This document shows positions 1-35,602 of a stretch of DNA of 64,000 nt, piece by piece. Each line of letters opens with the position of its first letter. Position 1 is the stretch's first letter. The stretch lies in the NCBI RefSeq assembly GCF_003182275.1, contig NZ_QGTR01000007.1, positions 1-64,000 of the forward strand. The letters run 5' to 3'. The stretch is from Hoeflea marina. Lineage in GTDB: Bacteria > Pseudomonadota > Alphaproteobacteria > Rhizobiales > Rhizobiaceae. The position numbers and the translations under genes are program-made. Below the pieces are notes generated by a model. The model made no database searches. It had not been told where the DNA came from and saw nothing but the letters and a program-made list of their open reading frames with translations.

Positions 1-10
1 CCTGGCTTGT

Positions 11-88
<78 letters not shown>

Positions 89-100
89 ATCAATCCAAAA

Positions 101-127
101 CCGCTCCCGCAAACCGGGGGCGGTTTT
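101..127 (+). terminator. rho-independent terminator of tRNA-fMet
   Basis: A 9-bp stem (CCGCTCCCG with CGGGGGCGG, one T-G wobble) has a CAAAC loop and is followed by TTTTT. It starts 14 nt after the tRNA CCA end. Confidence 0.85.
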
Positions 128-477
128 TGCGTTCAGGCGCCAAAGCACGCCCGGAACGCCGCATGCAGACAACTGCTGCGATGTCGCCAATCAGCCTGCG
201 ATCCCAAGGCCTTCCCGTCAGCCTGCCGCCCTCCCCAGCCTCCTGAATGGCGCGATACCGTTCCTCCGTCTTGGGGCGCGCGCGTGGCCGTAAGCCGTGC
301 CGTGAATTGGTCGCGGAGCAGGAGTTGGTCGATCGGTATCCACCGGCACGCAGGCGACGGCTTCTCAGTCAGTTCGATCTGTCTTGACAGGTTTTCCCGT
401 TGCGCGAGTATCACGCATTGCCGCCTTCGTTCTATTTCGCAGACGATCGCCCTTTGGACATCTCAAAGAGCCGAACC
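128..477. other. gene-free stretch between tRNA-fMet and the island
   Basis: I see no convincing gene in these roughly 350 bases on either strand. The open frames are short, lack good ribosome binding sites and resemble no family I know. If an integration scar beside the tRNA exists it should be here, but I see no integrase remnant and no clear repeat of the tRNA 3' end. Confidence 0.5.
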
Positions 478-1140
478 GTGTACGCCATCTCGATCCTCCG
501 GCTGGGGCCGGCCCATTTTCAGAATCTGGTCTACATCGTTTACGATGTGCGGACGAGGCATGCAGTCATCGTCGATCCTGCGTGGGACGAGCCGGCGATC
601 ACTGCCGCCTGTCATTCGCTCGGGCTAACGCTCCGCGGCATCCTTGTGACCCATTCGCATAGCGACCATGTCAGCGCGTTGACCGGATGCATCGGCGAAC
701 GGTCTGTCCCTGTGCTGATGTCGCGGAGTGAGGCCGAAAGAATTGGTTTGGCCGCCTCGTCCTTTCTGGATGTTCAGAACGCGGCCGAATACCGCCTCGG
801 CAGCTTGCGGGTCAAAGCGATAATGACTCCCGGCCATACGTCCGGTTCGATATGTTATCTGACCGATCAGGCCTTGTTCACCGGCGATACCCTCTTCATT
901 GAGGGATGCGGCGACTGTTCTTCGGAGGAGGGGTCTGTCCACGATATGTGGGAATCCATCCAGCGTCTCAAGGCTTGCATAGACGGAGACGTTCTCGTCT
1001 ATCCGGGACACCAGTACGAAAGCGGGCCCGGCGCCCGATTTTCATCGCTGCTCGAGAACAACATCTATTTGAGAATGAAGAACAGGGACACGTTTGCCGC
1101 CTTTGCAGGCAGGAAGAGCCTCAGAGGCGAAAACGGCTAG
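478..1140 (+). CDS. MBL-fold thioester hydrolase, PksB/BaeB type
   Basis: Metallo-beta-lactamase-fold hydrolase resembling PksB/BaeB, zinc hydrolases of trans-AT polyketide clusters that clip acyl groups off carrier proteins. The metal motif HSHSDH is at residues 59-64, followed by TPGHTSGS, FTGDTLF and YPGH. The stretch after FTGDTLF (EGCG, then M-ES-QR-K) and the C-terminal NNIYLR match PksB closely from memory. The GTG at 478 gives 220 aa, near the roughly 225-aa family length. An in-frame TTG at 400 would add 26 residues of no recognised homology. There is no polyketide synthase here, so the likely substrate is the stand-alone carrier protein encoded at 3408. Its end overlaps the convergent P450 by 4 nt. 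Confidence 0.82.
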   Translation: MYAISILRLGPAHFQNLVYIVYDVRTRHAVIVDPAWDEPAITAACHSLGLTLRGILVTHSHSDHVSALTGCIGERSVPVLMSRSEAERIGLAASSFLDVQNAAEYRLGSLRVKAIMTPGHTSGSICYLTDQALFTGDTLFIEGCGDCSSEEGSVHDMWESIQRLKACIDGDVLVYPGHQYESGPGARFSSLLENNIYLRMKNRDTFAAFAGRKSLRGENG

Positions 1141-2150
1141 GACGAGATCTTCTCCCGATGAACAGGGCATCTTGAGATCGACGTGCAGGTCGTGTGGCGG
1201 AAGGTTACCGGCCGCTGCACTCCCTCTGCCGATTCCATTGTGAAATCTCCGGGCACGAAGGTCATCAGTTTTTCCAGGTAGAGCTTCAACTCAGCCTTGG
1301 CGAGATTGCTTCCAGGACAACGGTGCCTGCCACGCCCCCAGACTAGATGATTGTCAGCCGTCAGCCGGGATGACTCACCCCGGGCATTCTCGTTTCGGTG
1401 CGATTTCATGATGTCGACATGCACGATGTCGCCCCGGCTGATCTCGATGTCCGCGAGCTTCATGTCTTTCGAACAATGGCGGGTTGCCAGCCCGAGGGGA
1501 ACATCGTCGATCAAGATCCGCAGGATTGCTCCATCCATCCCGTGGTCGGCAATGAGCCGTTCAAGCTCCTGATGCCGGCTATGCCAAACGCCGCACAGGA
1601 TCTTCATGGCTATGCCGGTTGTTTCCACGGCGCCGATGAGAAGGAGCGAAAGCTCGTTGATCCTATCCTTTGCAGAGGGCAATTCCCGGAAGATGTCACA
1701 TGCCCGTTCGAATTTGGGATCATGCGCATAGGCAAAGGCGGCCTTGCTGGCTTCCGTGTGGATGCCGTCTTCGAAATAGGTGACGATCGCCTTGATGTTC
1801 TGGTGATGGACCAGGGGATCGGTGTCCGGCAGGTTCATAAGCCTCAGCAGGATCCTGTTCGGAATGAAGGAGGTGGTCAGCAGGAGGTCATTGCGCTCCT
1901 CAGCCAGTCGGAAGCCCTCCACCATCGACGTTTCGATGATCTCCCGGTATTTTCGCTCGACATTGGTCCTGCTGAAGGCGCTCCGCCAGATTCGCTTGGA
2001 CTCCAGGTGATAGGGGCGTTCGGTGTCCAGCGCCGTGGCGCCGAGGATTTGGCGCGACAGACGCACCGGATAATCAGCCCGGAATACCGGATTGTCGAGC
2101 ACGAGGCACCCTTCGTGAAAGTCGTTAATATAGATTACCTTGTTCCTCAC
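1137..2150 (-). CDS. cytochrome P450, short form
   Basis: Haem monooxygenase fold. The Cys-ligand loop is WGRGRHRCPG with haem Cys278. The I-helix oxygen-activation motif is IGAVETTG, residues 172-179. At 337 aa it is shorter than typical bacterial P450s of about 400, the deficit being at the N terminus. The K-helix ExxR motif is not evident where expected (around residues 207-224, AILRILIDDVP), although that motif is nearly universal. The start is GTG with a strong AGGAGGAG Shine-Dalgarno about 6 nt upstream. It is transcribed divergently from the biosynthetic run at 2316 and ends convergently on the hydrolase. The probable role is oxidative tailoring of the cluster product or of a carrier-bound intermediate. 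The substrate is unknown. Confidence 0.85.
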   Translation of the reverse strand: MRNKVIYINDFHEGCLVLDNPVFRADYPVRLSRQILGATALDTERPYHLESKRIWRSAFSRTNVERKYREIIETSMVEGFRLAEERNDLLLTTSFIPNRILLRLMNLPDTDPLVHHQNIKAIVTYFEDGIHTEASKAAFAYAHDPKFERACDIFRELPSAKDRINELSLLLIGAVETTGIAMKILCGVWHSRHQELERLIADHGMDGAILRILIDDVPLGLATRHCSKDMKLADIEISRGDIVHVDIMKSHRNENARGESSRLTADNHLVWGRGRHRCPGSNLAKAELKLYLEKLMTFVPGDFTMESAEGVQRPVTFRHTTCTSISRCPVHREKISS

Positions 2151-2242
2151 CGCGTGCTCCTCCTATCGTAGATCGCATCTATCTGAGCCGATTTATCTAT
2201 TCCATACGTCAAGATGAATATTGGATTGGATACGATTGATGT

Positions 2243-2271
2243 TTGTCAGAATACCATTTATTGTATATATC
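2243..2271 (+). promoter_or_regulatory. candidate sigma-70 promoter of the biosynthetic run
   Basis: TTGTCA at 2243-2248 and TATATC at 2266-2271 are separated by 17 nt, in an AT-rich stretch between two divergent genes. Transcription would start near 2277. That would exclude the ATG at 2214 as translation start of the next gene and fits the TTG start at 2316. Confidence 0.45.
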
Positions 2272-2315
2272 GCCATTACAAAATTGGTTTGCTGAGCTGC
2301 CTGCAGGGGGTTCTT

Positions 2316-3392
2316 TTGACCGAGATATATTTTTCGCAGATCAAGGAGGATTCGTGGGTCGAGAAAGACCTGCTCTCCACCCACCCGAGCAGGCGGATCG
2401 TTGCCATCGGTTCTGGCGGATGCACGGCGTTCTCCCTGCTTGTGGACGATGTGGAGCGCCTGTACGCGGTGGATGCAAATCCGGCGCAATGCGCACTGAT
2501 TGACCTGAAGAAGGCTGCCATCCGGGCGCTCTGCCGGGAAGACTACCTGTCCTTTGTGGGGGAAGGGGACCGGATCGATCGCATGGAAGTCTATCGACGT
2601 CTTGTCGCCGACCTCCCGAGTTATGCGGCAGCGTTCTGGAACAGGCATCCCGGCAGAATTATCAAGGGCATCAACTATTCCGGAATGACCGAACGCTTCT
2701 ATCGCTTCATCGGCGATAATCTCCGATTGAACGTATGTTCTCCGGGCGCTTTGCAGGAACTGCTTGGCTGTGATGACGTGAATGAGCAAAGGGCACTTTA
2801 TGCCCGAAGCGTCAGGACGGAGAGCTGGCTGCTGGCTCTCCGCCTCATGTTCAGCAGGACCTCCCATGTTCCGTTCTATCCCGGCTTCTGGTTTACCGGA
2901 CGGGAAGAGACCATGTTTTCTGACTTCTTCATCGAACGCTTCGAGCACGAGATCGAAACGCGTCCGTTGCGGGGCAACTACTTCTTCTCGCAACTGATGT
3001 TCGGCACATTCGTCTTCGACGAACCCCGCGGCGTGCCGCCCTATATGTCGGCGGAACACTATGATGTCACGCGGCGCAACATCGACAAGCTGACGGTCGA
3101 GAACAAGCCGTTGCAGCATCTTATGATGGGGCTCGATGAAATCGACGGCTTCTATTTTTCCAATGTCTTTGACTGGGGCAAGGACAAGGACGCGGCCGAC
3201 GTGTGCCGAGGCATCCTGCATTGCAAGGCACAAGGCACGGCACGTTTCTTCTTCAGGAACATGTATCGCCCGACGTCTCTGCCCGACTTCTTTGCCGAGC
3301 GCTTCGATCGGAACGAGGAGCAGTCCCTGATCTCCTTCGCCAAGGAGCGCTCCATGCTCTACCGCCATGCCACGACCGGAACGATCAACTGA
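2316..3392 (+). CDS. BtaA-like SAM 3-amino-3-carboxypropyl transferase (DUF3419)
   Basis: Homologue of BtaA, which moves the 3-amino-3-carboxypropyl group of S-adenosylmethionine to diacylglycerol. Visible signatures of the family are KEDSWVE near the N terminus, the SAM-binding GSGGC (residues 32-36), then VDANPAQ (52-58) followed by LIDLKKAAI, and a closing domain with FFRNMYRP. I chose TTG at 2316 because AGGGGG lies 5 nt upstream. The in-frame ATG at 2214 would add 34 residues encoded by AT-rich DNA that also holds a promoter candidate. No BtaB-type methyltransferase is nearby, and a carrier protein and its ligase follow at once. The acceptor is therefore more likely a small molecule or carrier-bound amino acid than a lipid; that is inference. 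Confidence 0.8.
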   Translation: MTEIYFSQIKEDSWVEKDLLSTHPSRRIVAIGSGGCTAFSLLVDDVERLYAVDANPAQCALIDLKKAAIRALCREDYLSFVGEGDRIDRMEVYRRLVADLPSYAAAFWNRHPGRIIKGINYSGMTERFYRFIGDNLRLNVCSPGALQELLGCDDVNEQRALYARSVRTESWLLALRLMFSRTSHVPFYPGFWFTGREETMFSDFFIERFEHEIETRPLRGNYFFSQLMFGTFVFDEPRGVPPYMSAEHYDVTRRNIDKLTVENKPLQHLMMGLDEIDGFYFSNVFDWGKDKDAADVCRGILHCKAQGTARFFFRNMYRPTSLPDFFAERFDRNEEQSLISFAKERSMLYRHATTGTIN

Positions 3393-3407
3393 CAAGGGGG
3401 CAGTCGG

Positions 3408-3656
3408 ATGAAATCAACGACTTTTTCACAGGACATGCTGGCTTACATTGCAGGAAATTCCGCCGTTCCGAACATGCATTTCGATGAAGCCACGGACCTG
3501 ATCGAGACTGGCATCATCGACAGCTTCTCGATTATGTCTCTTCTGGCCTTCATTGCGGAAAAGACAGGCGTCAGGGTCGAACTCGAGGATCTCGTGCTTG
3601 ATACGATCCGTTCCGTCAGGGCCATGAACGAATCATTCAATCTGGGCGCTTCCTAG
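3408..3656 (+). CDS. stand-alone acyl/peptidyl carrier protein
   Basis: An 82-residue four-helix carrier protein. The phosphopantetheine attachment site is ETGIIDSFSIMSLLAFI with Ser39, followed by the family's typical helix III region (ELEDLVLDTIRSVRAM). It starts 15 nt after the transferase, with AGGGGG as ribosome binding site, and its stop codon directly abuts the ATG of the ligase gene. This is not the fatty-acid AcpP: the acidic DSLD-type motif is replaced by DSFS. Pairing with the adjacent aaRS-like ligase suggests that its pantetheine arm is loaded with an amino acid. Confidence 0.88.
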   Translation: MKSTTFSQDMLAYIAGNSAVPNMHFDEATDLIETGIIDSFSIMSLLAFIAEKTGVRVELEDLVLDTIRSVRAMNESFNLGAS

Positions 3657-4409
3657 ATGATCGGGCAGCACTCATTCTGCGTGACGCCGGCGCAGGAAGC
3701 GCTTTTCGATAGCGAACTGTCCAAGCTGGCGTGCTTTCGCAATGCCACGGCCGTTCGGCTGTCGCCTCTGCTCTCGGAGGAGTTCGTTCTTGCCGCCAAT
3801 TACATGAAGTCGTTCCCGCAGCATGCTTTTCGGGTCACGAACGGTCTGCACGAAGACTCCGGCTACCTGCTTTCGCCCACATGCTGCTATCCGGTGTTCT
3901 CGCACCTGAGCGGCCAGACGGTGACGCAAGGACGCATCTTTACCCACAAGAACCAGTGCTACCGCCGTGAGGACTACATCAGGATCGGCGAGCGGCAGTC
4001 CGCATTCCTCATGCGCGAATATATTGCCTTCAATCCGGATCTCGAGCTCATAAGAGCCTGGATAGACGACGTGAAGCTTCGCGTCAGCGGTCTTCTGGAA
4101 CGGTTCGGATTGGCACCGTCGCTGGATGTGGCAAGCGATCCCTTCTTCAATCCTGATGATTACAAGCACAAGATCCAGAAAGCGGAGAGGCTGAAGACGG
4201 AGTTCGTCATCGACGGGCTGGCCATCGGATCCGTCAACCTCCACTTACGCTCGTTTACCAACGCATGTTCGATTCGGGATCCGCAGGGACAACCGCCCCA
4301 TAGCGCTTGCTTCGGGCTTGGTTATGACCGGCTTGCGCATGTCCTGAACAAACATGGATCCGGCGAAGTGGCGCTCGGCGAGGAAGCTGGCCGGGAGGCG
4401 GACGCTTGA
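3657..4409 (+). CDS. amino acid:[carrier protein] ligase (class II aaRS-like)
   Basis: A 250-residue protein built on the class II aminoacyl-tRNA synthetase catalytic core and lacking any tRNA-binding domain. Motif 2 is seen around residues 94-122 (GRIFTHKNQCYRRED, then FLMREYI). Motif 3 is near the C terminus (SACFGLGYDRLA). Cys76 or Cys77, Glu121 and the motif 3 Cys fit the Cys-Glu-Cys zinc site of the seryl-tRNA-synthetase-like family. Described members in Bradyrhizobium and Agrobacterium activate glycine or alanine and load it onto a carrier protein; that comes from family knowledge. The gene is fused end-to-start to the carrier protein gene and its stop overlaps the next TTG start, so translation is probably coupled. 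Amino acid specificity cannot be read by eye. Confidence 0.85.
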   Translation: MIGQHSFCVTPAQEALFDSELSKLACFRNATAVRLSPLLSEEFVLAANYMKSFPQHAFRVTNGLHEDSGYLLSPTCCYPVFSHLSGQTVTQGRIFTHKNQCYRREDYIRIGERQSAFLMREYIAFNPDLELIRAWIDDVKLRVSGLLERFGLAPSLDVASDPFFNPDDYKHKIQKAERLKTEFVIDGLAIGSVNLHLRSFTNACSIRDPQGQPPHSACFGLGYDRLAHVLNKHGSGEVALGEEAGREADA

Positions 4410-5248
4410 ACCAAAACACCCGGCCTGCGGCCCTTTCCCGGTCGAGCGGCGTACCGTTCATCAAGATGCACGGGGCCGGCAACGACTTCGTGGTGATCGA
4501 CAGCCGCGGTTGCGTGCATGACGTTCAACGCGAACTCGTCGTGTTGATGGGCGATCGGCGACGCGGCGTGGGATTCGACCAGTTGGCCGAGCTTCTGGAC
4601 TCTGACGCTACCGGCGTCGATCTTCGACTGCGCTTCTGGAATGCGGACGGCAGCCTGGCGGAGGCTTGTGGCAATGCCACCAGATGTGTGGCCTCGCTGC
4701 TATTCGAAGAGGACGCTTCGCGTGCCGGGCTGAAGATCCAGACACCGCGCGGCATTCTATCGGCAGAAAGGCGCGAGGACCAGATCTGGGTGGATATGGG
4801 CGCGCCGCTGTTCGGCTGGGAGGAGATTCCGTTGGCCCGGCCCCTCGATGCGCGCGCCTTGCCGATTGCCGGTCAGCCGGATGCGGTCAGCATCGGCAAT
4901 CCCCATTGCGTCTTCTTCGTTGAGGATGCCGACTGCGCCAGAGTGGAGGAACTCGGCCCGTTGATGGAAAACGACGGCTTGTTTCCCGCCAGAACCAATG
5001 TCGAATTCGTCAGCCTTGTCTCGGAGAATGTGCTGAGGATGCGGGTATGGGAGCGCGGGACAGGGGTTACCCTTGCCTGCGGATCTGGTGCCTGTGCGGC
5101 AGCTGTCTGTGCCTATCATCGTGGACTGACGGATCACAGGACCAAGCTGCTGGTGGATGGAGGCGAACTGGAAGTCGATTGGTGTCATGACAGCCTGTGG
5201 TTGACGGGGCCGGTATGCAAGGTCTTTTCCGGCATGTTTCTCCCATGA
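4406..5248 (+). CDS. DapF-family amino acid epimerase
   Basis: PLP-independent epimerase of the diaminopimelate epimerase family, 280 aa. The N-terminal half begins with FIKMHGAGNDFVVID. The two catalytic cysteines sit in EACGNATRC (Cys88) and ERGTGVTLACGSGAC (Cys225), so both bases of the two-base mechanism are present. The TTG start overlaps the ligase stop codon (TTGA), and about 16 extra residues precede the conserved core. Lysine-pathway neighbours (dapA, dapD, lysA) are absent. In this context it more likely inverts an alpha centre of the cluster product, as the DapF-like histidine racemase CntK does in staphylopine synthesis. A plain second DapF cannot be excluded. Confidence 0.82.
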   Translation: MNQNTRPAALSRSSGVPFIKMHGAGNDFVVIDSRGCVHDVQRELVVLMGDRRRGVGFDQLAELLDSDATGVDLRLRFWNADGSLAEACGNATRCVASLLFEEDASRAGLKIQTPRGILSAERREDQIWVDMGAPLFGWEEIPLARPLDARALPIAGQPDAVSIGNPHCVFFVEDADCARVEELGPLMENDGLFPARTNVEFVSLVSENVLRMRVWERGTGVTLACGSGACAAAVCAYHRGLTDHRTKLLVDGGELEVDWCHDSLWLTGPVCKVFSGMFLP

Positions 5249-5343
5249 TGTTTCAAAGTGGAGCCGATGCGCCGTGACGACGGCCGCCGGTTCGACAAGA
5301 CACTTACCAGCAGCCGGCGGACAGACAGCAACAGGAGGCGGAC

Positions 5344-5961
5344 ATTTCGATCAATTTCCTTGCGCTCATGGGTGTGACGCTGGTTGCGACAATCAGCCCC
5401 GGACCCGGGACCATGACAATCGCCAACGCCTCCATGCAGAACGGCAGGCCGTTCGGGCTGGCGACGGCGAGCGGCATCCTGACGGGATCAGTCCTGTGGT
5501 CCTGCGGGGCGGCTTTTGGACTGGCTGCGATCATGGCGGCCAGTCCATGGACGTTCGAGCTGATGCGCTATGTCGGCGCCAGCTATCTCCTCTATCTGGC
5601 CTTCAAGGCCGCCCGGTCGGTTTTCGCAGAGGTGGCTGCCGGGCGTGATGTGCGAGGCAGACGATCGCTGAAGGCCGCCTATCTGCAAGGCATTGCCATT
5701 CACCTCACCAATCCGAAGGTCATCTTGTCATTCGGATCGGTCTATTCGGTCTTCACGCCTCCCGGTACAGACGTCGGCACGCTGTTGCTCGCGGTGCTCT
5801 TTCTCGGTCTGCAGAGTGCGACCGTCTTCTTCGCCTATGCCATTCTGTTCTCGATCAAGGGTGTGGTGGGCTTCTACAAGCGCATGTACCGCTGGTTCGA
5901 AGGCGCGTTCGGCCTGGTTTACGCAGCCGCGGGCCTTGCTCTCTTCCTCCATGCGTTCTGA
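5344..5961 (+). CDS. LysE/RhtB-family amino acid exporter
   Basis: Integral membrane exporter of about 205 aa with the family hallmark SPGPGTM in the first helix and the conserved HLTNPKVILSF segment in the middle. It has five to six hydrophobic segments. Start choice: the first ATG (5368) has no ribosome binding site and would put the PGP motif at residue 11 instead of about 20. An ATT at 5344 lies 5 nt after a perfect AGGAGG and restores the usual N terminus; no ATG, GTG or TTG lies in frame upstream before the stop at 5275. I annotate from the ATT and regard ATG 5368 as the conservative alternative. It probably exports the amino-acid-like product. Confidence 0.83.
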   Translation: MSINFLALMGVTLVATISPGPGTMTIANASMQNGRPFGLATASGILTGSVLWSCGAAFGLAAIMAASPWTFELMRYVGASYLLYLAFKAARSVFAEVAAGRDVRGRRSLKAAYLQGIAIHLTNPKVILSFGSVYSVFTPPGTDVGTLLLAVLFLGLQSATVFFAYAILFSIKGVVGFYKRMYRWFEGAFGLVYAAAGLALFLHAF

Positions 5962-5974
5962 AGGACAGACGTTC

Positions 5975-6856
5975 ATGCTGGCAGACCCAGGTCAAGACAA
6001 TCGGCAGGTTTACGTGAACGGCGCCTTTGTGCCGGCGGGCGAGGCGACGATTTCCGTCTTCGACCGAGGTTTCCTGATGGCCGACGCGGTGTACGAGGTG
6101 ACTGCAGTGGTGGGCGGCAAGCTTGTCGACCTGACCTGCCATATGAACCGCCTGCATCAGTCGCTGGAGGCACTTGAGATTCCCGATCCGCATTCGCTGG
6201 ATGCCTGGAGAGAGCTTCACAGAGCAGTCGTGGCGAGAAACAGCCTCGCCGAAGGCCTGGTTTATGTCCAGGTCAGCAGGGGTTCCACAGGTGAGCGCGA
6301 CATCGCACGACCTGAAGTGGATCCTTCGCCGACGGTCGTGCTGTTCTCAAGATCAATCCCGGGGTTCATGACTCCGCTGTCCATGCACACCGGCCTGAAG
6401 ATCATGTCCGTTCCCGATCTTCGCTGGGGCCGCTGCGACATCAAGAGCGTGCAACTCATCTACACCTCCATGGCCAAGCTGATCGCCAAGAGGTCGGGGG
6501 TCAACGATGTCTGGTATGTGGACAATGGCATCGTGACGGAGGGGACATCGCACAATGCGGGCATCGTGGTCGGACGCGAGATCATCACGCATCCCGCCGA
6601 CGCCGGCATCTTGCCCGGCGTCACCAGGGCGGCCTTGATCCGGCTCGCTCGGGAAGAGGGGTATCAGGTCAGTGAGCGAGGCTTTGCGCTGGAGGAGGCC
6701 TATGCCGCTTCCGAGGCTTTTGCCACCGCAGCGATGTCCTATTTCCTGCCGATCGTGCAAATTGACGGCCGGCGAATCGGGACTGGCACACCGGGAGAGA
6801 CCGTCCGCAAGCTCAGGAGGATCTACGCGGAAGAGGCGTTGAGACATGCCGAATGA
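5975..6856 (+). CDS. class IV (D-amino-acid type) aminotransferase
   Basis: Fold-type IV PLP enzyme, 293 aa. SVFDRGFLMADAVYEVT is the D-amino acid transaminase N-terminal signature. The Schiff-base lysine is Lys157 in DIKSVQL. VTEGTSHN and GILPGVTR are the cofactor phosphate regions. The length matches D-alanine aminotransferase (about 285). I chose ATG 5975, preceded by AAGGA, over ATG 5951, which has no binding site and overlaps the exporter. Together with the DapF-type epimerase it points to a D-configured or stereo-edited amino acid intermediate. It could also be a branched-chain aminotransferase or aminodeoxychorismate-lyase-like enzyme, but the first signature favours the D-amino acid group. 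Confidence 0.85.
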   Translation: MLADPGQDNRQVYVNGAFVPAGEATISVFDRGFLMADAVYEVTAVVGGKLVDLTCHMNRLHQSLEALEIPDPHSLDAWRELHRAVVARNSLAEGLVYVQVSRGSTGERDIARPEVDPSPTVVLFSRSIPGFMTPLSMHTGLKIMSVPDLRWGRCDIKSVQLIYTSMAKLIAKRSGVNDVWYVDNGIVTEGTSHNAGIVVGREIITHPADAGILPGVTRAALIRLAREEGYQVSERGFALEEAYAASEAFATAAMSYFLPIVQIDGRRIGTGTPGETVRKLRRIYAEEALRHAE

Positions 6857-7209
6857 GGTGGGAACGCGGCTTCGATCATTGCCGGGAGGACCTTGGCCAC
6901 CTCCTCGACGGCACCGCTGCGGTCAACGCGAAACCTGAAGCTACGGCCCGATCTCCACGGCGATCACCCTGCGGGTAGGCCCTACCCGGGCGCGGCGCCG
7001 GTTCGCGGGTTCCATCCTGACCGTCACCAGATCGCGCCGGACAAACGCACAGAGTCTCCCGTTCGGAAGCGGCTTCTTGCGTTCCGGCCCATATCCCGGC
7101 TTCATCAAGCCGATCATGCCGCCCATGCCCTTTCCATTCATCCCGACGTCATCGGGCTGGAAGCAATCCCGCGCGACCGCGACCGGGTCGCGATCGCGCG
7201 GGTAGGGTG
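6857..7209. other. gene-free stretch closing the island
   Basis: No convincing gene. A 66-codon minus-strand frame (6941-7141) begins with Met/Gly-rich residues and is followed by Arg-rich sequence, but it has no good ribosome binding site and no family I recognise. A small 7-bp inverted repeat (GGGTAGG and CCTACCC, one base apart) lies at 6973-6987 and a long one at 7168-7202. Confidence 0.45.
7168..7202. repeat. long GC inverted repeat downstream of the ALDH gene
   Basis: Two arms of about 17 bp, CCCGCGCGA(C/T)CGCGACC and its reverse complement with one mismatch, lie back to back almost without a loop. The position, 8 nt beyond the stop of the minus-strand aldehyde dehydrogenase, suits transcription termination or mRNA 3' protection, but there is no T run. 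Confidence 0.6.
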
Positions 7210-8688
7210 CTACCAGTTGACCGCGATGTACTTGGTCTCGCAGAATTCGAGAATGCCGTGATGGGCGCCCTCGCGGCCGAGGCCGGACTGCTTGACGCCG
7301 CCGAAGGGGGCTGCTGGGTCTGACGCCAAGCCCCGGTTGAGTCCGATCATGCCGCTTTCCAGCCGCTCCGAGACGCGGAAGCCACGCCCGAGATCTCGGG
7401 TGTAGACATAGGCGATCAGGCCGTATTCCGTGTCGTTGGCGGCCGCGATGACCTCGTCCTCGGTGCCGAACGTGGTAATGGCAGCGATCGGCCCGAAAAT
7501 CTCCTCGCGGGTGATGGCGGCATCGGCCGCGACATTGCTGATGACGGTGGGCGGGAAGTAGAAGCCGTCGCCCGACTGCTGCCTGCCGCCGGTGCGCAAC
7601 GTGGCGCCGCGGCTCACGGCTTCATCGACCAGCCCGGAGACGCGCTCGACGGCGTCCCGGTTGATCAGCGGTCCGCACTGCGTCGCCCTGTCATAGCCGG
7701 GGCCCACCTTCATGGCGCCCATGCGCTCGGAGAGTTTCACTGAAAAGGCCTCGGCGATCCCCTCCTGCACATAGAAGCGGTTGGCCGCCGTGCAGGCCTC
7801 GCCGCCATTGCGCATCTTGGCAATCATCGCGCCTTCGATGGCCGCGTCGAGATCGGCGTCGTCGAAGACGATGAAGGGCGCATTGCCGCCAAGCTCCATC
7901 GAGCAGGAGATCACGGTGTCGGCGGCTTCGTGCAGCAGCTTGCGGCCGACCTCTGTCGAGCCGGTGAACGAGAGTTTGCGCACCCGCGGATCATGCAGCA
8001 TGGCGCTCACGGCAGCACCGGATCGGCTGGTGGTGATGACGTTGACGACTCCGTCCGGAACCCCGGCCTCGGCATAGAGGGCCGCCAGCGCATAGGCCGT
8101 CAGCGGCGTCTCGGTGGCGGGCTTGAGCACGCAGGTGCACCCGGCGGCGAGCGCCGGGCCGATCTTGCGCGTGGCCATGGCAGCCGGGAAGTTCCATGGC
8201 GTCACCAGCACGGCGACACCGATGGGCTGCTGCTGGACGACGATCCGGTTGGCGCCCGACGGCGCCGTGGCGATCTCGCCGTTGAGCCGCACCGCCTCCT
8301 CGGAGAACCAGCGGAAGAACTCGGCCGCGTAGGCGACCTCGCCTTGCGCATCGCTCAGCGCCTTGCCGTTTTCCAGACTGATGAGTTCGGCCAGCATGTC
8401 CTTGCGCTCGATCATCAGTTCGAAGCAGCGGCGCAGGATTTCCGAGCGCTTCCGCGGCGCGGTCGCGGCCCAGGCCGGGCCTGCGCGGTGCGCGGCCGCG
8501 ACGGCCGCCATGGCGTCATCGATACCGGCGTCGGCCACCGAGGTGATGACGGCGCCGGTTGAGGGGTCGATGACGTCGATGCGCTTTCCGGTCGAGCCCT
8601 CGACCCACTGGCCGCCGATATGGAGATCGGTCGGCAGCGAGCCGATGTCGAAGCTTATCTGCGAGGCGAATGTCGGTTTGATGGTCAT
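7210..8688 (-). CDS. NAD(P)-dependent aldehyde dehydrogenase (succinate-semialdehyde type)
   Basis: Full-length 492-aa aldehyde dehydrogenase. The cofactor region includes TPWNFPAAM and FTGSTEVGRKLL. The general base Glu lies in MELGGNAPFIVF and the catalytic Cys in NGGEACTAANRF. The C-terminal PFGGVKQSGLGREG is typical of the GabD/succinate-semialdehyde group, so a small semialdehyde is the likely substrate. It is the last gene of a leftward operon, separated by only one base from the iron alcohol dehydrogenase. The pair would take an alcohol through an aldehyde to an acid. Expression is probably set by the divergent GntR regulator at 11045. Confidence 0.92.
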   Translation of the reverse strand: MTIKPTFASQISFDIGSLPTDLHIGGQWVEGSTGKRIDVIDPSTGAVITSVADAGIDDAMAAVAAAHRAGPAWAATAPRKRSEILRRCFELMIERKDMLAELISLENGKALSDAQGEVAYAAEFFRWFSEEAVRLNGEIATAPSGANRIVVQQQPIGVAVLVTPWNFPAAMATRKIGPALAAGCTCVLKPATETPLTAYALAALYAEAGVPDGVVNVITTSRSGAAVSAMLHDPRVRKLSFTGSTEVGRKLLHEAADTVISCSMELGGNAPFIVFDDADLDAAIEGAMIAKMRNGGEACTAANRFYVQEGIAEAFSVKLSERMGAMKVGPGYDRATQCGPLINRDAVERVSGLVDEAVSRGATLRTGGRQQSGDGFYFPPTVISNVAADAAITREEIFGPIAAITTFGTEDEVIAAANDTEYGLIAYVYTRDLGRGFRVSERLESGMIGLNRGLASDPAAPFGGVKQSGLGREGAHHGILEFCETKYIAVNW

Positions 8689-8689
8689 G

Positions 8690-9940
8690 TCAGTTGGCCT
8701 TTCGGTCTGTCCGGGAGGGGCGAAGGCTGGCGCGGTCGCCGCTGAAGGCGGCTGCCACCAGGGTCGCCATGGTGTCGAGTTCGATGGGGCGGGGATTGTT
8801 CTTGATCAGCCGTGCCGCGCCCATGGCCTGCTCGGCAATCTGCGGCAGTTGCGAGGACACGACGCCCAGATCGGCGATGGTCTTCGGGATGCCGATGGCG
8901 GCGAAAAGCTGCTCGACCGCGTCGATCGTGTCGCCCGCCTGCTCGGTGATCGTCCGCCCGGCTCCGTCGAGGCCCATGGCCTGGCCGATCTCGGCAAGCT
9001 CCGTCTCGCAATGCGAGCGGTTGAACTCCATCACATAGGGCATCATGACAGCCACGCCTGCGCCATGCGGCGTGTGGGTGAGCGCGCCGATCGGATATTG
9101 AATGGCATGCGCGGCGGCGGTGCCGGCGGTGCCGAAGGCGAGGCCGGCCGCGGTGGCGCCGAGCATCATGCGTTCGCGCGCCTCGCTGTCGCCACCGTTG
9201 TCGCAGGCCCGCTTGAGGCTGGCGGCGATGTGGCCGATGGCAAGCAGGGCATAATGATCGCTGAGCGCGTTCTTGCCGAGGAAGACATGGTCGTGGACGA
9301 TCGTGCCGGTGGGCTGGCGCCGAATGGTGGTGTACGCCTCGATGGCATGGGTCAGCGCATCGGCGCCCGAGACCGCGGTCAGGCCGCGCGGGCAGGACCA
9401 GGTCAGTTCCGGATCGCAGATGGCGGTGTGGCAGATGAGGTGCGGGCTGGCGATGCCGACCTTCACCGCCCGGTCCGGATCGGTGACGACCGCCACCGGG
9501 GTGACCTCCGAGCCGGTGCCCGAGGTGGTGGGCATCAGGATGAGCGGCAGCACGGGGCCGGGAACCTTGAACTCGCCGTAATAGTCCTGGATCCGGCCGC
9601 CATGGGCAAGCAGCAGGGCTGCGACCTTGGCGGCATCGAGACAGCTGCCGCCGCCGATGCCGATGACCAGATCGGCGTCCATCGCCTTGCCCGCCTGCAC
9701 GGCGGCGGCGATGCACTCGATCGGCAGTTCGGCGATGGTGCCGTCAAAGACGCGGGCCTCGACGCCTGCCTGCCGCACCGCTTCCACCAGCCGGAGAAAT
9801 TCCGGGTCGGCGCCCAGCCGCTCGTCGGTGACGATCAGGGCGCGACGTCCGAGTGATGCGGCGTAGCCTGCGAGCGCATCGCGCTGGCCGGTTCCGAAGA
9901 CGAGATTGCGCGGGGTGCGCAGTGTTCCAAACAACGACAA
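8690..9940 (-). CDS. iron-containing (group III) alcohol dehydrogenase
   Basis: 416-aa Fe-ADH family enzyme. The NAD-binding GGGSCLDAAK and the TSGTGSEVTPVAVV segment are present. Metal-site histidines lie in DALTHAIEAYTT and in GALTHTPHGAGV. I chose TTG 9940, with GGAGG 7 nt upstream, giving the standard family start SLFGTLRTPRNLVFG. A longer reading to 9988 would add 16 residues overlapping the preceding gene and has no support. The gene lies between the Ldh-family dehydrogenase and the aldehyde dehydrogenase. Members oxidise small alcohols or reduce aldehydes and maleylacetate; the true substrate cannot be told. Confidence 0.9.
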   Translation of the reverse strand: MSLFGTLRTPRNLVFGTGQRDALAGYAASLGRRALIVTDERLGADPEFLRLVEAVRQAGVEARVFDGTIAELPIECIAAAVQAGKAMDADLVIGIGGGSCLDAAKVAALLLAHGGRIQDYYGEFKVPGPVLPLILMPTTSGTGSEVTPVAVVTDPDRAVKVGIASPHLICHTAICDPELTWSCPRGLTAVSGADALTHAIEAYTTIRRQPTGTIVHDHVFLGKNALSDHYALLAIGHIAASLKRACDNGGDSEARERMMLGATAAGLAFGTAGTAAAHAIQYPIGALTHTPHGAGVAVMMPYVMEFNRSHCETELAEIGQAMGLDGAGRTITEQAGDTIDAVEQLFAAIGIPKTIADLGVVSSQLPQIAEQAMGAARLIKNNPRPIELDTMATLVAAAFSGDRASLRPSRTDRKAN

Positions 9941-9962
9941 ATGATGTCCTCCCGATGTGAAG

Positions 9963-10967
9963 TTATGCGGCTGCCTTGACGCCGGCAAGGCGCTGGACGG
10001 TTTCCCAGACTTCGTCGGCGAGCGGCACGCCGTCGCGGAGCCGCTCGGCGCGGCAGGTCCGCCCGCGCTCGCCCGGGATCATCACGCCGCCGAAGCCGGC
10101 GGCCGGTTCCATGGCGCGGATCTCGCTGAGATAGGCCTGCAGGTCGCGGCGCGGTCCCTTGATGACGATGAAGACGTCGCCCTTGTTGCAGATCTCGGTG
10201 TCGTCGAGCGTGCCGTGCACCTGCCGGCCGATGGCCGCGCCCGTGAGGCTGCTGACCATGAGCTCGAAGGCAAGCCCGAGCGCGTAGCCCTTGGCGCCGC
10301 CAAAAGGCGCGATGGCGCCGGACTTGGCCGCTTCCGCGTCGGTGGTTGGATTGCCATCGGCATCGAGCGCCCAGTGCGTCGGAATGGCTGCCTTGCGGTG
10401 CGCGTGATCGTGGATCTCACCCATCGAGACGACGCTGGTGGCGGTGTCCATCATGAAGGGCTCGCCGCCAGTCGGAATGCCGATGGCGACCGGATTGGTG
10501 CCGATCATCGCCCGTCGCGCGCCCCAGGGGTGCACGAGCGCCTCGCTGGTCGACAGCGCGATCACGGTGAAACCACGCGCGGCGACGCGCTCGGCGTACC
10601 AGCCGAGCATGCCGATGTGGTTGGAATTGGTGATGGCCGCGACCGCCGTGCCGCTGTCCTCGGCCCTTGCCATCAGCGTCTCCAGCGCTGCATTGGCGAC
10701 CACGGGACCGAGGCCGGTCTCGCCGTCGACGGCCAGGAAGGCCGCGCCGCGCCAGTCCTGCCGGCCGCTGGCGCGCGGGTCGGTGACGCCGTTGCCGATT
10801 CGCCGGACGATGCGCTCGAGCCTCAGCAGGCCGTGCGACGGCACGCCCCGCAGATCGGCCTCGACAAGGAGTTCAAGCTGCGTGTCGGCGTGGTCCGGCG
10901 GTACGCCGGCGCGTTCGAGCGCTCGCTTTGCCAGCTTTTCTAGAGTAGAAACGTCGATGACAGCCAA
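9963..10967 (-). CDS. Ldh-family malate/L-lactate/ureidoglycolate-type dehydrogenase
   Basis: 334-aa NAD(P)-dependent oxidoreductase of the malate/L-sulfolactate dehydrogenase family (PF02615), a fold distinct from Rossmann lactate dehydrogenases. Visible family marks are VEADLRGVPSHGLLRL, NSNHIGMLGWYAERVA and GTNPVAIGIP, plus FGGAKGYALGLAFELM. It probably interconverts a 2-hydroxy acid and a 2-oxo acid. It is the first gene of the leftward operon with the alcohol and aldehyde dehydrogenases, and its promoter region faces the GntR gene. A palindrome lies 8 nt upstream of its start. Confidence 0.9.
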   Translation of the reverse strand: MAVIDVSTLEKLAKRALERAGVPPDHADTQLELLVEADLRGVPSHGLLRLERIVRRIGNGVTDPRASGRQDWRGAAFLAVDGETGLGPVVANAALETLMARAEDSGTAVAAITNSNHIGMLGWYAERVAARGFTVIALSTSEALVHPWGARRAMIGTNPVAIGIPTGGEPFMMDTATSVVSMGEIHDHAHRKAAIPTHWALDADGNPTTDAEAAKSGAIAPFGGAKGYALGLAFELMVSSLTGAAIGRQVHGTLDDTEICNKGDVFIVIKGPRRDLQAYLSEIRAMEPAAGFGGVMIPGERGRTCRAERLRDGVPLADEVWETVQRLAGVKAAA

Positions 10968-10974
10968 GAATAAA

Positions 10975-10986
10975 ATCCGATCGGAT
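10975..10986. promoter_or_regulatory. palindromic operator candidate, GntR intergenic region
   Basis: ATCCGATCGGAT is a perfect 12-bp palindrome in the 77-bp gap between the divergent dehydrogenase operon and the GntR gene. It runs into ATCGGATATACGAT, an overlapping inverted repeat (ATCG, 6 bases, CGAT). The position suits autoregulation and control of the leftward operon by the adjacent FCD-type regulator. Confidence 0.5.
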
Positions 10987-11044
10987 ATACGATTTGGCGA
11001 TGACTATGCTGGCAAGTGCATGCCGCGTCAAGGGAGAAGGCCGG

Positions 11045-11743
11045 ATGGCAAGAGAGATCACAGGGGCGGCCGAAGCCGCGGGCGGGCTGCTGCGACGGCC
11101 GACGCGGCTCGGCGAGGAGGTCTACGGCGCCATCTATGCCCAGTTGATGTCGCTGAAGATCCCGCCGGGGGGGCGGATCTCGGTCGACAGCCTGGTGCGC
11201 GAGTTCGGGGTCTCGCAGACGCCGATCCGCGAGGCGCTCTCGCGGCTCGAGGCCCAGGGGCTGGTGGTCAAGACCCACCTGATCGGCTACAGCGCCGCCG
11301 ACCAGATCGGCCGCGACCGGCTGCACCAGCTCTATGAGCTGCGACTGCTGCTGGAGCCTTTCGCCGCGCGCCGTGCAGCCATTGCCGTCACTGACGAGAC
11401 CATCGCTTCGCTCGAGGCCGTGGACCGCGACATGCACGAGAAGAACCACGAGGACGCGCGTCTGGCCTATGGCGAATTCGCCCGCAGCGACGGTGCGTTT
11501 CATGACATGATCGCGCTCGTCTCCGGCAATGCCCTGGTGCACGAAACACTTGCCCGGCTGCATGTGCATGTGCATCTGTTCCGGCTGTATTTCCACGCCC
11601 GAGCGACCACGGACGCCAACGAGGAGCACGCCCGCATCCTCGCCGCGATGAGGCGCCGCGACCCCGATGGCGCCGAAGAGGCGATGCGCGAGCACATCGA
11701 GCGTTCGCGCGCCCGGTTCATGACGATCTTCGACCGCGACTGA
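11045..11743 (+). CDS. GntR-family transcriptional regulator, FCD type
   Basis: 232-aa regulator. The N-terminal winged helix contains ISVDSLVREFGVSQTPIREALSRLEAQGLV, and the all-helical FCD ligand-binding domain follows (LYELRLLLEPFAARRAA, then FHDMI and EEHARILAAM, where the metal-binding histidines sit). I chose ATG 11045, preceded by GGGAGAAGG, rather than ATG 10994, which has no binding site and would extend into the operator region. It is divergent from the Ldh/Fe-ADH/ALDH operon and probably represses it until a carboxylate ligand binds. It could also act on the aldolase operon downstream, which has its own promoter. Confidence 0.9.
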   Translation: MAREITGAAEAAGGLLRRPTRLGEEVYGAIYAQLMSLKIPPGGRISVDSLVREFGVSQTPIREALSRLEAQGLVVKTHLIGYSAADQIGRDRLHQLYELRLLLEPFAARRAAIAVTDETIASLEAVDRDMHEKNHEDARLAYGEFARSDGAFHDMIALVSGNALVHETLARLHVHVHLFRLYFHARATTDANEEHARILAAMRRRDPDGAEEAMREHIERSRARFMTIFDRD

Positions 11744-11932
11744 CCCAACCGCCGGTTCAGCCCGGACGATCGTGCCTGAAGGCGAGACGGGGCGGCGTTG
11801 CACAGCGTCGGCGCCCCATGTCAAGCCGCCGTCCAGATGCCCGCGCACCGGGGCTGTCCGACTGTCTTGTCCTGCCATTCCTCCCCGACTCCGCGCTGCG
11901 GCCCCGCCGCCGGTCATGCCGGATGCTGCCTA

Positions 11933-11975
11933 TTGACAGCTTTCAAAAAACCCGCAATGTATCGCTTACAAGAAG
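11933..11975 (+). promoter_or_regulatory. promoter with shared 11-bp motif, aldolase operon
   Basis: TTGACA at 11933-11938 is followed after 16-17 nt by CAATGTA. The -10 element overlaps the 11-mer AATGTATCGCT (11956-11966), which recurs at the same place in the IclR promoter (18596-18606). The ribosome binding site AGGAGG at 11998 precedes the GTG start of the aldolase. Confidence 0.55.
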
Positions 11976-12007
11976 ATTGTTCTGCACAGCGGAACATAGG
12001 AGGACGC

Positions 12008-12808
12008 GTGAACGGATCGGACTTCAGCACTTTCAGGTCGCGCTTCAGAAACGGAGAGCCGCTTTTCGGCACGTTCCTGAAGACCCCGACCACGCATGCC
12101 AGCGAGATCATGGGCTCGGTGGGCTTCGATTTCGTCGTCATCGACGAGGAACATGCCCCCTTCAATCCGGAAACCACCGACCAGATGCTGCTGGCGTGCA
12201 GGGCATCCGGGGTGGCGGGAATCGTCAGGGTCCGCGGTTCGGAGGCCTGCCACATCCTTCCGGTGCTTGATGGCGGCGCGACAGGCGTGCTCGTCCCGCA
12301 TGTCGACAGCGTGGCCAAGGCAAAGGCGGTCGTCGATGCCTGCCGCTATGCCACCGGTACCCGCGGTTTTTCCAACACCACGCGCGCTGGCGGCTTCGGC
12401 AGGGCGGGCTTCGCCGGGCATGTGTCCGAGCAGGACAACGGCGTCACTGTCATCGCCATGATCGAGGATCCGCACGCCATCGACCTGGTCGACCAGATCC
12501 TCGCCGTCGACGGAATTGATGGCGTCTTCATCGGCCGTGGCGATCTGACGATTGCCTACCGGCAGTGGGACGGCGGATCGCCTGCCGTGCGCGAGGCCAC
12601 CGACACCATTCTGGCCGCCGCCCGCAAGGCCGGAAAGCCGGTCTGCATCCTGGCCGGGTCGCTTGACGATGCCGCCGAGCTCACGGCCAAGGGCGCGTCC
12701 GCATTCATCCTCTCCTCCGACCAGGGCCTGATGCGTCAGGCGGCAATCAAGACGCTGGCCGATTTTTCCGAGCGGGTGGCGCAGTCGCTGGAGAAGGCCG
12801 ATGCCTGA
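12008..12808 (+). CDS. HpcH/HpaI-family class II aldolase
   Basis: 266-aa metal-dependent aldolase that cleaves or forms 4-hydroxy-2-oxo acids to give pyruvate plus an aldehyde. It has the family's FGTFLKTP start, DEEHAPF carrying the catalytic His, the VRVRG arginine, the metal-binding Glu in MIEDPHAI and Asp in FIGRGDLTIAY, a slight variant of the usual GPNDLS. The start is GTG 12008 behind AGGAGG. It is the first gene of a rightward catabolic operon with a DUF6282 protein and a TRAP transporter. The substrate is unknown; the absence of homoprotocatechuate genes argues against HpaI itself. Confidence 0.88.
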   Translation: MNGSDFSTFRSRFRNGEPLFGTFLKTPTTHASEIMGSVGFDFVVIDEEHAPFNPETTDQMLLACRASGVAGIVRVRGSEACHILPVLDGGATGVLVPHVDSVAKAKAVVDACRYATGTRGFSNTTRAGGFGRAGFAGHVSEQDNGVTVIAMIEDPHAIDLVDQILAVDGIDGVFIGRGDLTIAYRQWDGGSPAVREATDTILAAARKAGKPVCILAGSLDDAAELTAKGASAFILSSDQGLMRQAAIKTLADFSERVAQSLEKADA

Positions 12809-12948
12809 CGGGCGCTGCGGGGCCCGACGCGGCAGCACGGCCGCGCCGACTCCATGCGCCAATGTCGCATCATCCGAATGCCGCGGCAGGACCGCGGCGC
12901 TGATCACACGCCGATGCGCTGCGGAGCGGCGGCAGGAAGGATTGCTCA

Positions 12949-13857: not shown

Positions 13858-13906
13858 CCGGTGCGGAAAGACCAATCCATGTTGCACTGAAAAGGGAGGA
13901 AAACCA

Positions 13907-14899: not shown

Positions 14900-14914
14900 G
14901 ATCGAGAACGGCGG

Positions 14915-14955
14915 ACACTGTCCCGTCGGGCCCCTCCGGCCCGGCGGGACAGTGT
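14915..14955 (+). terminator. intra-operon hairpin between dctP and dctQ
   Basis: A perfect 18-bp stem with one T-G wobble (ACACTGTCCCG(T/C)CGGGCC arms) and a CCTCC loop lies 15 nt after the dctP stop. There is no T run, so it looks more like an mRNA-stabilising or attenuating structure than a full terminator. Confidence 0.8.
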
Positions 14956-14991
14956 CGCATGAACGGCCCGTGTGGACGAGGGAGAGACAGC

Positions 14992-35529: not shown

Positions 35530-35602
35530 CGGGCCGCGCAGGCCATGTATAAGGAAAGGAAAATTCGCCAGCGCCACGCATCCGCGTGCCCCTCTTCAGG
35601 AA

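What the first reader, a model, noticed from the sequence alone, without database searches (positions are those of the whole stretch)
478..6856. Compact carrier-protein pathway without PKS or NRPS: candidate undescribed amino acid or metallophore biosynthesis system
Seen: a PksB-type hydrolase, P450, BtaA-like SAM transferase, stand-alone carrier protein, aaRS-like amino acid:carrier ligase, DapF-family epimerase, LysE exporter and D-amino-acid aminotransferase, six of them in one direction with overlaps or small gaps (up to 95 nt). Known: each family separately. Inference: an amino acid is loaded on the carrier by the ligase; the 3-amino-3-carboxypropyl group of SAM is added; P450, epimerase and aminotransferase tailor it; the MBL enzyme releases it; LysE exports it. 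I know no described cluster with this set.
Basis: partly seen in the sequence, partly recalled or inferred. Interest (0 to 1): 0.92.

Follow-up and report, generated by a model that had tools for sequence, protein, structure and literature searches.

The report
Acquired carrier-protein amino-acid biosynthesis operon
A foreign-looking block of eight genes beside a tRNA gene seems to build and export a small unusual amino acid on a carrier protein, using an enzyme from a branch separate from its well-known lipid-making relatives; the product is unknown and no second copy of the gene set was found.

Summary
In detail: eight ORFs lie at 478-6856, six co-directional (three of them abut or overlap), families as named. 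All eight share low GC3 (0.64-0.76, against 0.78-0.87 in five genes to the right). The block sits beside tRNA-Met, and its right-hand neighbour has another flank in a congener: probably acquired as a unit. New points: (1) the 'BtaA' is not a BtaA. It changes 30 of 62 conserved columns and groups with one MAG protein outside the BtaA-type clades. (2) The ligase keeps the zinc triad and class-II motif residues. (3) The DapF keeps 61 of 64 conserved columns, so its substrate should be DAP or something like it, unless it is a spare target enzyme. (4) The 'P450' keeps its haem cysteine but lacks ExxR. No syntenic copy was found, in searches with limited reach. Best reading: a carrier-tethered amino acid receives a SAM-derived aminocarboxypropyl group, is released, epimerised and exported; the transfer step is inferred. 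The metallophore reading has no support. New variant of a known kind; product undetermined.

The parts
11..87 (+). tRNA-Met (CAT) at the left edge of the contig, a plausible integration site
   Evidence: ARAGORN; the window starts at base 1 of contig C7
478..1140 (+). P0001 MBL-fold hydrolase, proposed thioester release
   Evidence: PF00753 E 2.4e-17; NCBIfam SolJ E 1.2e-54, below cut-off; HSHSDH metal motif in the sequence; PDB hits
1137..2150 (-). P0002 short, divergent P450-like protein: haem Cys loop present, ExxR absent
   Evidence: PF00067 E 1.1e-5; alignments to solved P450s and to a G289 P450; AGGAGG before the GTG start
2316..3392 (+). P0003 DUF3419 protein outside the BtaA-type clades, proposed SAM aminocarboxypropyl transferase (open frame with ATG from 2214)
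   Evidence: PF11899 E 2.8e-45; 30 of 62 conserved columns changed; tree; model pLDDT 85.9
3408..3656 (+). P0004 stand-alone carrier protein, Ser in GIIDS for phosphopantetheine (motif recalled)
   Evidence: PF00550 20.8 bits; sequence
3657..4409 (+). P0005 class-II aaRS-like amino acid:[carrier protein] ligase homologue, short form
   Evidence: Bll0957 E 1.8e-18; C77/E121/C218 and R103/E105/R225 invariant in 23 rows; Foldseek E 2.7e-19
4406..5248 (+). P0006 DapF-family epimerase with the DapF catalytic and contact residues
   Evidence: TIGR00652 235.9 bits; 61 of 64 conserved columns kept; named residues
5344..5961 (+). P0007 LysE/RhtB-type amino-acid exporter (first ATG 5368; likely ATT start 5344)
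   Evidence: PF01810 E 2.2e-28; sequence
5975..6856 (+). P0008 class IV (D-amino acid type) aminotransferase
   Evidence: PF01063 E 6.5e-40; PRK06680 311.3 bits; catalytic Lys and Glu aligned to 1daa (their roles are recalled)
478..6856 (.). Whole block, low GC and GC3; probable acquired island, right edge between 6857 and 7205
   Evidence: congener G005 similarity starts at 7206 and its flank differs

Best explanation
A horizontally acquired operon that makes and exports a small non-protein amino acid. Supported by sequence: P0005 is an aaRS-like carrier-protein ligase with the catalytic residues intact and a carrier protein P0004 beside it; P0003 is a DUF3419 protein outside the betaine-lipid clades; P0006 is an intact DapF-type epimerase; P0007 belongs to the amino-acid exporters. 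Inferred: P0005 adenylates an L-amino acid and loads it on the phosphopantetheine arm of P0004; [quoted passage not shown] P0001 hydrolyses the thioester; the freed compound has two alpha-amino-acid ends, so the DapF-type pocket can turn one centre from L to D; P0008 transaminates that D end or balances the pool; P0007 exports the product. P0002 may oxidise the tethered residue first, but its missing ExxR makes this the weakest step. The order of steps and the identity of the amino acid are not known.
For: Operon packing; shared low GC3 of all eight genes; zinc triad and motif 2/3 residues invariant in P0005 and Bll0957 as top fold match; a carrier-protein gene near the ligase in 5 of the 6 plasmid ligase loci viewed, L070-L074 (in L074 the gene is unnamed but matches P0004), the sixth, L110, having no annotation; in Streptomyces L070 the same cassette logic, oxygenase + ACP + ligase + MBL hydrolase; P0003 loses about half of the BtaA-conserved columns but keeps D87, invariant in 34 rows; P0006 keeps the DapF residues; aminocarboxypropyl transfer from SAM to small molecules is established chemistry (PMC10491745, passages).
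Against: No second copy of the set was found. P0001 and P0002 are outside the operon. P0002 lacks ExxR. The only close relative of P0003 (L111) has none of the other seven genes matched within its 11 kb locus and no ligase match in its genome (a negative without a positive control). Other DUF3419 genes outside the BtaA-type clades sit beside genes that I read as lipid genes. The P0003 model gives only weak fold matches (none at E<=0.001). P0005 is far below its curated cut-off. No chemistry was tested.
Confidence: 0.45

Rival explanations
1. Self-protection version: the operon makes an amino-acid antimetabolite that blocks DAP or D-amino-acid metabolism, and P0006 (and perhaps P0008) are spare, insensitive copies of the target enzymes rather than pathway enzymes.
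For: P0006 is an almost unaltered DapF (61 of 64 columns; above the curated cut-off), and the genome has its own DapF (42%) and D-aminotransferase-like gene (49%).
Against: P0006 overlaps P0005 by 4 nt within the operon, which fits a pathway step as well. A related DapF-fold enzyme works in an antibiotic pathway (O-ureidoserine racemase matched; PMC8142540, passages).
Confidence: 0.22
2. Lipid or envelope version: P0003 modifies a lipid head group and the ligase/carrier pair supplies an aminoacyl group for it, as D-alanylation does.
For: DUF3419 is known from betaine lipids; other members outside the BtaA-type clades (L113, L116, L128) lie beside genes that I read as phospholipid or acyltransferase genes (my reading, no family search).
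Against: No acyltransferase, MBOAT or methyltransferase family in the block; the LysE exporter and DapF point to a soluble amino acid; P0003 is on a different branch from those members.
Confidence: 0.1
3. Metallophore of the staphylopine type (racemase + aminocarboxypropyl transferase + dehydrogenase).
For: A DapF-type epimerase and a possible aminocarboxypropyl transferase occur together, as in the cnt operon (the comparison is recalled).
Against: P0003 is DUF3419, not NAS/CntL; no opine dehydrogenase in the eight genes and no TonB receptor or siderophore family in 30 chosen further window ORFs; a carrier protein is not used in that pathway (recalled).
Confidence: 0.04
4. Neighbours by chance or a decaying island: several genes moved together without forming one pathway, and P0002 is on its way out.
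For: No synteny found elsewhere; P0002 lacks ExxR; P0001 and P0002 face other ways.
Against: Abutting or overlapping co-directional genes, intact catalytic residues in P0005, P0006 and P0008, similar GC3 throughout.
Confidence: 0.15

Closest known systems
Amino acid:[carrier protein] ligase Bll0957 (Bradyrhizobium) and its carrier protein
   Same: Fold, zinc ligands, motif 2/3 residues, adjacent carrier-protein gene
   Different: P0005 is 250 aa, shorter at the N-terminus, 26-31% identical to the 22 relatives aligned, far below the curated NCBIfam cut-off; it sits in a DUF3419/DapF/LysE operon
BtaA, SAM:diacylglycerol aminocarboxypropyl transferase
   Same: Pfam family DUF3419 and invariant residues such as D87
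   Different: Outside the BtaA-type clades, 30 of 62 conserved columns changed, no BtaB in the block; the genome has another DUF3419 copy (L082) inside a BtaA-type clade
Carrier-tethered amino-acid tailoring modules (adenylation enzyme + carrier protein + oxygenase + thioesterase, e.g. nikkomycin NikP1/NikQ; recalled)
   Same: Load, tailor on the carrier, release
   Different: aaRS-like ligase instead of an ANL adenylation domain; a possible SAM aminocarboxypropyl transferase and a DapF are added
Streptomyces sp. NBC_00335 plasmid cassette (L070)
   Same: Diiron oxygenase, ACP, aaRS-like ligase, PPTase and MBL hydrolase in a row
   Different: Diiron oxygenase instead of a P450-like protein; own PPTase genes; lies among ketosynthase genes; no DUF3419, DapF or LysE annotated in the 25 kb viewed
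D-cycloserine O-ureidoserine racemase (7vdy) and CntK (recalled)
   Same: DapF-fold epimerase inside a small-molecule pathway (E 4e-44 for 7vdy)
   Different: P0006 is closer to housekeeping DapF (48-52% to the ten best class matches)

Membership tests
Amino acid:[carrier protein] ligase | Zinc ligands Cys-Glu-Cys and class-II motif 2/3 arginines | tested here: met
   C77, E121, C218, R103, R225 invariant in 23 rows; that C77/E121/C218 are the zinc ligands is recalled from Bll0957
Amino acid:[carrier protein] ligase | Adjacent carrier protein | tested here: met
   P0004 ends 0 nt before P0005
Amino acid:[carrier protein] ligase | Curated equivalog score NF005479 | tested here: not met
   97.7 bits, cut-off 357: a homologue, not filed in this equivalog
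Amino acid:[carrier protein] ligase | Aminoacylates the carrier protein | not testable with these tools
   needs enzyme assay
BtaA (betaine lipid) | DUF3419 domain | tested here: met
   E 2.8e-45
BtaA (betaine lipid) | Falls in the BtaA clade | tested here: not met
   separated by a 100/99 branch in a 29-row tree; that the two large clades are BtaA is inferred, none of their rows was tested
BtaA (betaine lipid) | BtaB N-methyltransferase partner | tested here: not met
   no methyltransferase family among the other seven genes
Diaminopimelate epimerase | Curated equivalog score, two catalytic Cys, substrate-contact residues | tested here: met
   235.9 vs 114.65 bits; N26 Q59 N79 C88 N165 N198 E216 R217 C225; the roles of these residues are recalled
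Diaminopimelate epimerase | Acts on DAP | not testable with these tools
   needs enzyme assay
D-amino-acid transaminase | Curated score PRK06680 (NF005209) | tested here: not met
   311.3 bits, cut-off 320: just under; catalytic Lys and Glu align
Cytochrome P450 | Haem-ligating Cys loop | tested here: met
   WGRGRHRCPG aligned to solved P450s
Cytochrome P450 | ExxR motif of the K helix | tested here: not met
   LRILI where TamI and the G289 P450 have EE(F/L)LR
Staphylopine-type metallophore operon | CntL/NAS-type transferase and opine dehydrogenase | tested here: not met
   no such Pfam family in the eight genes
NRPS/PKS cluster | Condensation, ketosynthase or ANL adenylation domain | tested here: not met
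   none in the eight genes

The most novel reading that the evidence does not exclude
The operon makes an ether-bridged (or similarly bridged) bis-amino acid, a mimic of diaminopimelate: an amino acid held on a carrier protein is alkylated by a SAM aminocarboxypropyl transferase from a DUF3419 branch that does not make lipids, then released, turned into the meso form by a DapF-type enzyme and exported by LysE. It would be the first SAM aminocarboxypropyl transfer onto a carrier-tethered substrate and the first DUF3419 enzyme outside lipid chemistry (first as far as I know; the listings of searches and the review passages show none, but these lists are capped and the library is partial).
Probability: 0.22. 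Interest if true: 0.85.

Novelty: new variant of a known kind. Interest (0 to 1): 0.58.

Why it matters
If right, it gives aaRS-like carrier-protein ligases a defined metabolic setting, shows DUF3419 acting outside membrane lipids, and offers a compact set of eight genes that can be moved into a laboratory host to test for a new DAP-like amino acid, a compound class that touches cell-wall and lysine synthesis. It also marks a gene set that searches built on NRPS/PKS signature domains would be expected to miss.

Tried and rejected
Synteny searches. P0003: 61 genomes incl. own (38 matched; all matches but the window copy at 23-30% identity); 289 class genomes (8 incl. own at E<=1e-20, best other 31%); 398 phylum genomes with the two-row profile A4 (29 incl. 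own at E<=1e-15, best other E 6e-37); plasmids (12 records, under 30%); genome contigs with P0003 alone (46 stretches, no relative) and with A3 (344 stretches, 252 relatives, best 80 kept: L111 at 36% and E 1e-58, next E 2e-26). These scans need short conserved peptides, so relatives lacking them are missed. P0005: 93 of 397 order genomes and 87 plasmid records. P0002: 2 of 397 incl. own at E<=1e-12, no plasmid. Co-occurrence: of 87 loci only the three window loci and L074 (P0004+P0005) matched two or more of the eight proteins; of 82 loci none. Limits: loci from the genome search are about 3-4 kb long, so only some 1.5 kb on each side was seen; of the 93 ligase genomes only 29 besides the window had a locus, and of the 87 plasmid records I viewed six.

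Viral scans gave one 25% relative and none. DapF and MBL plasmid neighbourhoods and one more ligase locus gave nothing syntenic (searches showed no annotation in the stretch).

Ligase tree: P0005 has an end branch of 8 changes per column; its place is unsure and not used. Foldseek on the P0003 model: no hit at E<=0.001, weak matches, mostly SAM methyltransferases. Island ends: no second copy of the tRNA 3' end in the window; no integrase family among the 38 window proteins scanned with Pfam, but ORFs at 6893-12808 and others were not scanned, and the left side is cut by the contig end. PHROGs gave only two uninformative matches. Literature: searches showed no paper on such a cluster in the listings that I saw (empty; some searches listed 15-20 of 111 to 13,839 papers). 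PMC10817482 and PMC10204066 held nothing of use in the passages searched.

Rows left out before counts: one of 138 P0003 loci, L110, a ligase locus, had no match, and L111 was kept out of the reference columns; three pairs of rows are identical (L009/L194, L076/L112, L081/L197), and rows are related, so they are not independent. In one search the 30 DapF rows are 29 of the best class matches plus the genome's own. In one search I chose 28 of the 137 relatives (the seven strong deviants, L167 and a spread).


Full report
Observation. The window begins at base 1 of contig C7 of a 5.26 Mb draft genome. A tRNA-Met lies at 11-87. P0003 to P0008 run in one direction with gaps of 15, 0, -4, 95 and 13 nt if P0007 begins at the ATT at 5344 and P0008 at the ATG at 5975. 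P0001 (plus) and P0002 (minus) are convergent, and P0002 is divergent from P0003. Start corrections are my reading of the sequence: TTG 2316 for P0003 behind GGGGG, supported by the low confidence of residues 1-24 in the model and by an ATG at the equivalent place in its relative L111, whose frame is open further upstream; P0002 has AGGAGG before its GTG, so its short N-terminus is probably real. Promoter and terminator scans were near their shuffles and say nothing.

Foreign origin. GC of the 1 kb windows from 1 to 7000 is 0.54-0.63, against 0.62-0.69 from 7001 to 16000. GC3 is 0.64-0.76 in the eight genes and 0.78-0.87 in five genes to the right. In the congener G005 the neighbouring aldehyde dehydrogenase gene (my naming) is present, 89% over 1130 bases and 87% over 370 bases, on two contigs, but the DNA beyond it is unrelated to the block and holds no tRNA in 8 kb; similarity begins at window 7206. 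I read this as an acquired block next to a tRNA gene. No repeat of the tRNA end was found in the window, no integrase was met among the 38 proteins scanned, and the left side is cut by the contig end, so the island is likely but not proven.

P0003. It belongs to DUF3419, the family of BtaA. In 137 aligned relatives (L111 not used as reference), 62 columns are at least 90% conserved; P0003 changes 30 of them, while the median relative changes under 2%. Seven other rows deviate by 43-50%: L080, L116, L111, L138, L128, L113 and L124. In a tree of P0003 and 28 chosen relatives, P0003 and L111 are sisters (100/99), grouped with the other six deviants apart from the two BtaA-type clades (100/99); the tree is rooted at the midpoint and has long branches (L138, L111, L080, L128). 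The genome's second DUF3419 copy (L082) falls inside a BtaA-type clade. Thus 'BtaA-like' holds for the family but not for membership. L111 is a MAG contig (39% identity, 35-36%), far ahead of the next of 252 relatives in the species-wide scan (E 1e-58 against 2e-26); none of the other seven proteins matched in its 11 kb, and a search of its genome for P0005 was empty (no positive control). Several of the other deviants lie beside genes that I read as lipid genes, which is why a lipid rival is kept. The structure model (mean pLDDT 85.9) gives only weak matches, mostly to SAM methyltransferases, in the PDB.

P0005 and P0004. P0005 matches the solved ligase Bll0957 by sequence (E 2e-18) and by fold (E 3e-19, TM 0.76 over the query, model pLDDT 78.5). 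In 23 aligned ligases C77, E121, C218, R103, E105 and R225 are invariant; that the first three hold zinc is recalled from the Bll0957 structures. It is shorter than its relatives and scores far below the curated NCBIfam cut-off, so I call it a homologue that should work like a ligase and do not file it in that equivalog. Against 34 ligases it changes 24 of 60 conserved columns; four ligases from plasmid loci with natural-product-like neighbours (L070, L072, L073, L074) deviate to a similar degree (39-48%), L071 by 11% and the rest little. Five of the six plasmid ligase loci viewed have a carrier-protein gene close by (in L074 it is unnamed but matches P0004); the sixth has no annotation. In L070 a diiron oxygenase, ACP, ligase, PPTase and MBL hydrolase stand in a row, a separate case of the load, oxidise, release logic. 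The genome has one PF01648 phosphopantetheinyl transferase match, so the carrier can probably be activated. It also has another ligase homologue (31%, C4:487641), about 1.6 kb from a PF00550 match (C4:485884).

P0006 and P0008. P0006 passes the curated DapF cut-off and keeps 61 of 64 columns that are at least 95% conserved in 30 alphaproteobacterial DapF proteins. N26, Q59, N79, C88, G89, N90, N165, N198, E216, R217, C225 and G226 are all present; their roles in catalysis and in binding both ends of DAP are recalled. It is 48-52% identical to the ten best of 228 matching class genomes and 42% to the genome's own DapF. An enzyme this little changed should act on DAP or on another compound with two alpha-amino-acid ends. 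That fits a product made by adding an aminocarboxypropyl group to an amino acid, but it fits a spare target enzyme too. P0008 is 49% identical to a second aminotransferase of the genome and just misses the PRK06680 cut-off; the Lys and Glu that I recall as catalytic in 1daa align.

P0002 and P0001. P0002 has the haem loop WGRGRHRCPG and an I-helix GAVETT, but where TamI and the G289 P450 read EE(F/L)LR it reads LRILI. No close relative was found: 2 of 397 order genomes including its own, the other at 27%, and no plasmid. I therefore do not rely on an oxidation step. P0001 has the HSHSDH motif and matches MBL structures of the hydroxyacylglutathione hydrolase and persulfide dioxygenase type and, below cut-off, SolJ; thioester release is an inference.

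Mechanism. The best-supported chain is: load (P0005, P0004), alkylate with the aminocarboxypropyl group of SAM (P0003), release (P0001), epimerise (P0006), adjust by transamination (P0008), export (P0007). Loading and export follow from the families; the alkylation step is the key inference, and the substrate is unknown. Aminocarboxypropyl transfer to small molecules is known from NAS, CntL, MccD, NAT, BtaA and discadenine synthase (PMC10491745, passages); the passages that I saw name no carrier-bound substrate.

Against. No syntenic copy was found; the details and limits are under Tried and rejected. The block could be rare, or it could be a mixture. The eight genes hold no NAS/CntL-type gene or opine dehydrogenase, and 30 further window ORFs that I chose (26 with a Pfam match) gave no TonB or siderophore family, so the metallophore reading is set aside.

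Verdict. It is a new variant of a known kind, carrier-tethered amino-acid tailoring, with one part, a DUF3419 protein outside the BtaA-type clades, that would be new to small-molecule biosynthesis if its proposed reaction is shown.

Noticed in passing
window 5333-5346: The LysE gene has AGGAGG followed by an in-frame ATT upstream of the first ATG (5368), giving a fuller LysE N-terminus; possible ATT start codon.
   Followed up: no
L070:10780-14392: Streptomyces plasmid cassette of diiron oxygenase, ACP, aaRS-like ligase, PPTase and MBL hydrolase beside ketosynthase genes: a separate user of the ligase-ACP-oxygenase-MBL logic.
   Followed up: partly
L113, L116, L128, L124, L138, L080: DUF3419 proteins outside the BtaA-type clades, five of them in MAGs of several phyla, some beside genes I read as decarboxylase, acyltransferase and PEP-synthase-like genes; possibly unknown lipid pathways.
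   Followed up: partly
G000:C4:485884-488165: Another aa:CP ligase homologue of this genome lies about 1.6 kb from a PF00550 carrier-protein match, a separate pathway.
   Followed up: no
window 35516-38392: ORF of 958 aa that joins a PMT_2 mannosyltransferase-type domain with a pectic acid lyase domain, an odd fusion.
   Followed up: no
window 34507-35529: Histone-deacetylase-family gene (PF00850) near class III aminotransferase and beta-keto acid cleavage enzyme genes.
   Followed up: no
NZ_OY970457.1 417984-418841 (hit H83): Mycobacterium riyadhense plasmid carries a DUF3419 protein 29% identical to the L111 relative; neighbourhood not viewed.
   Followed up: no
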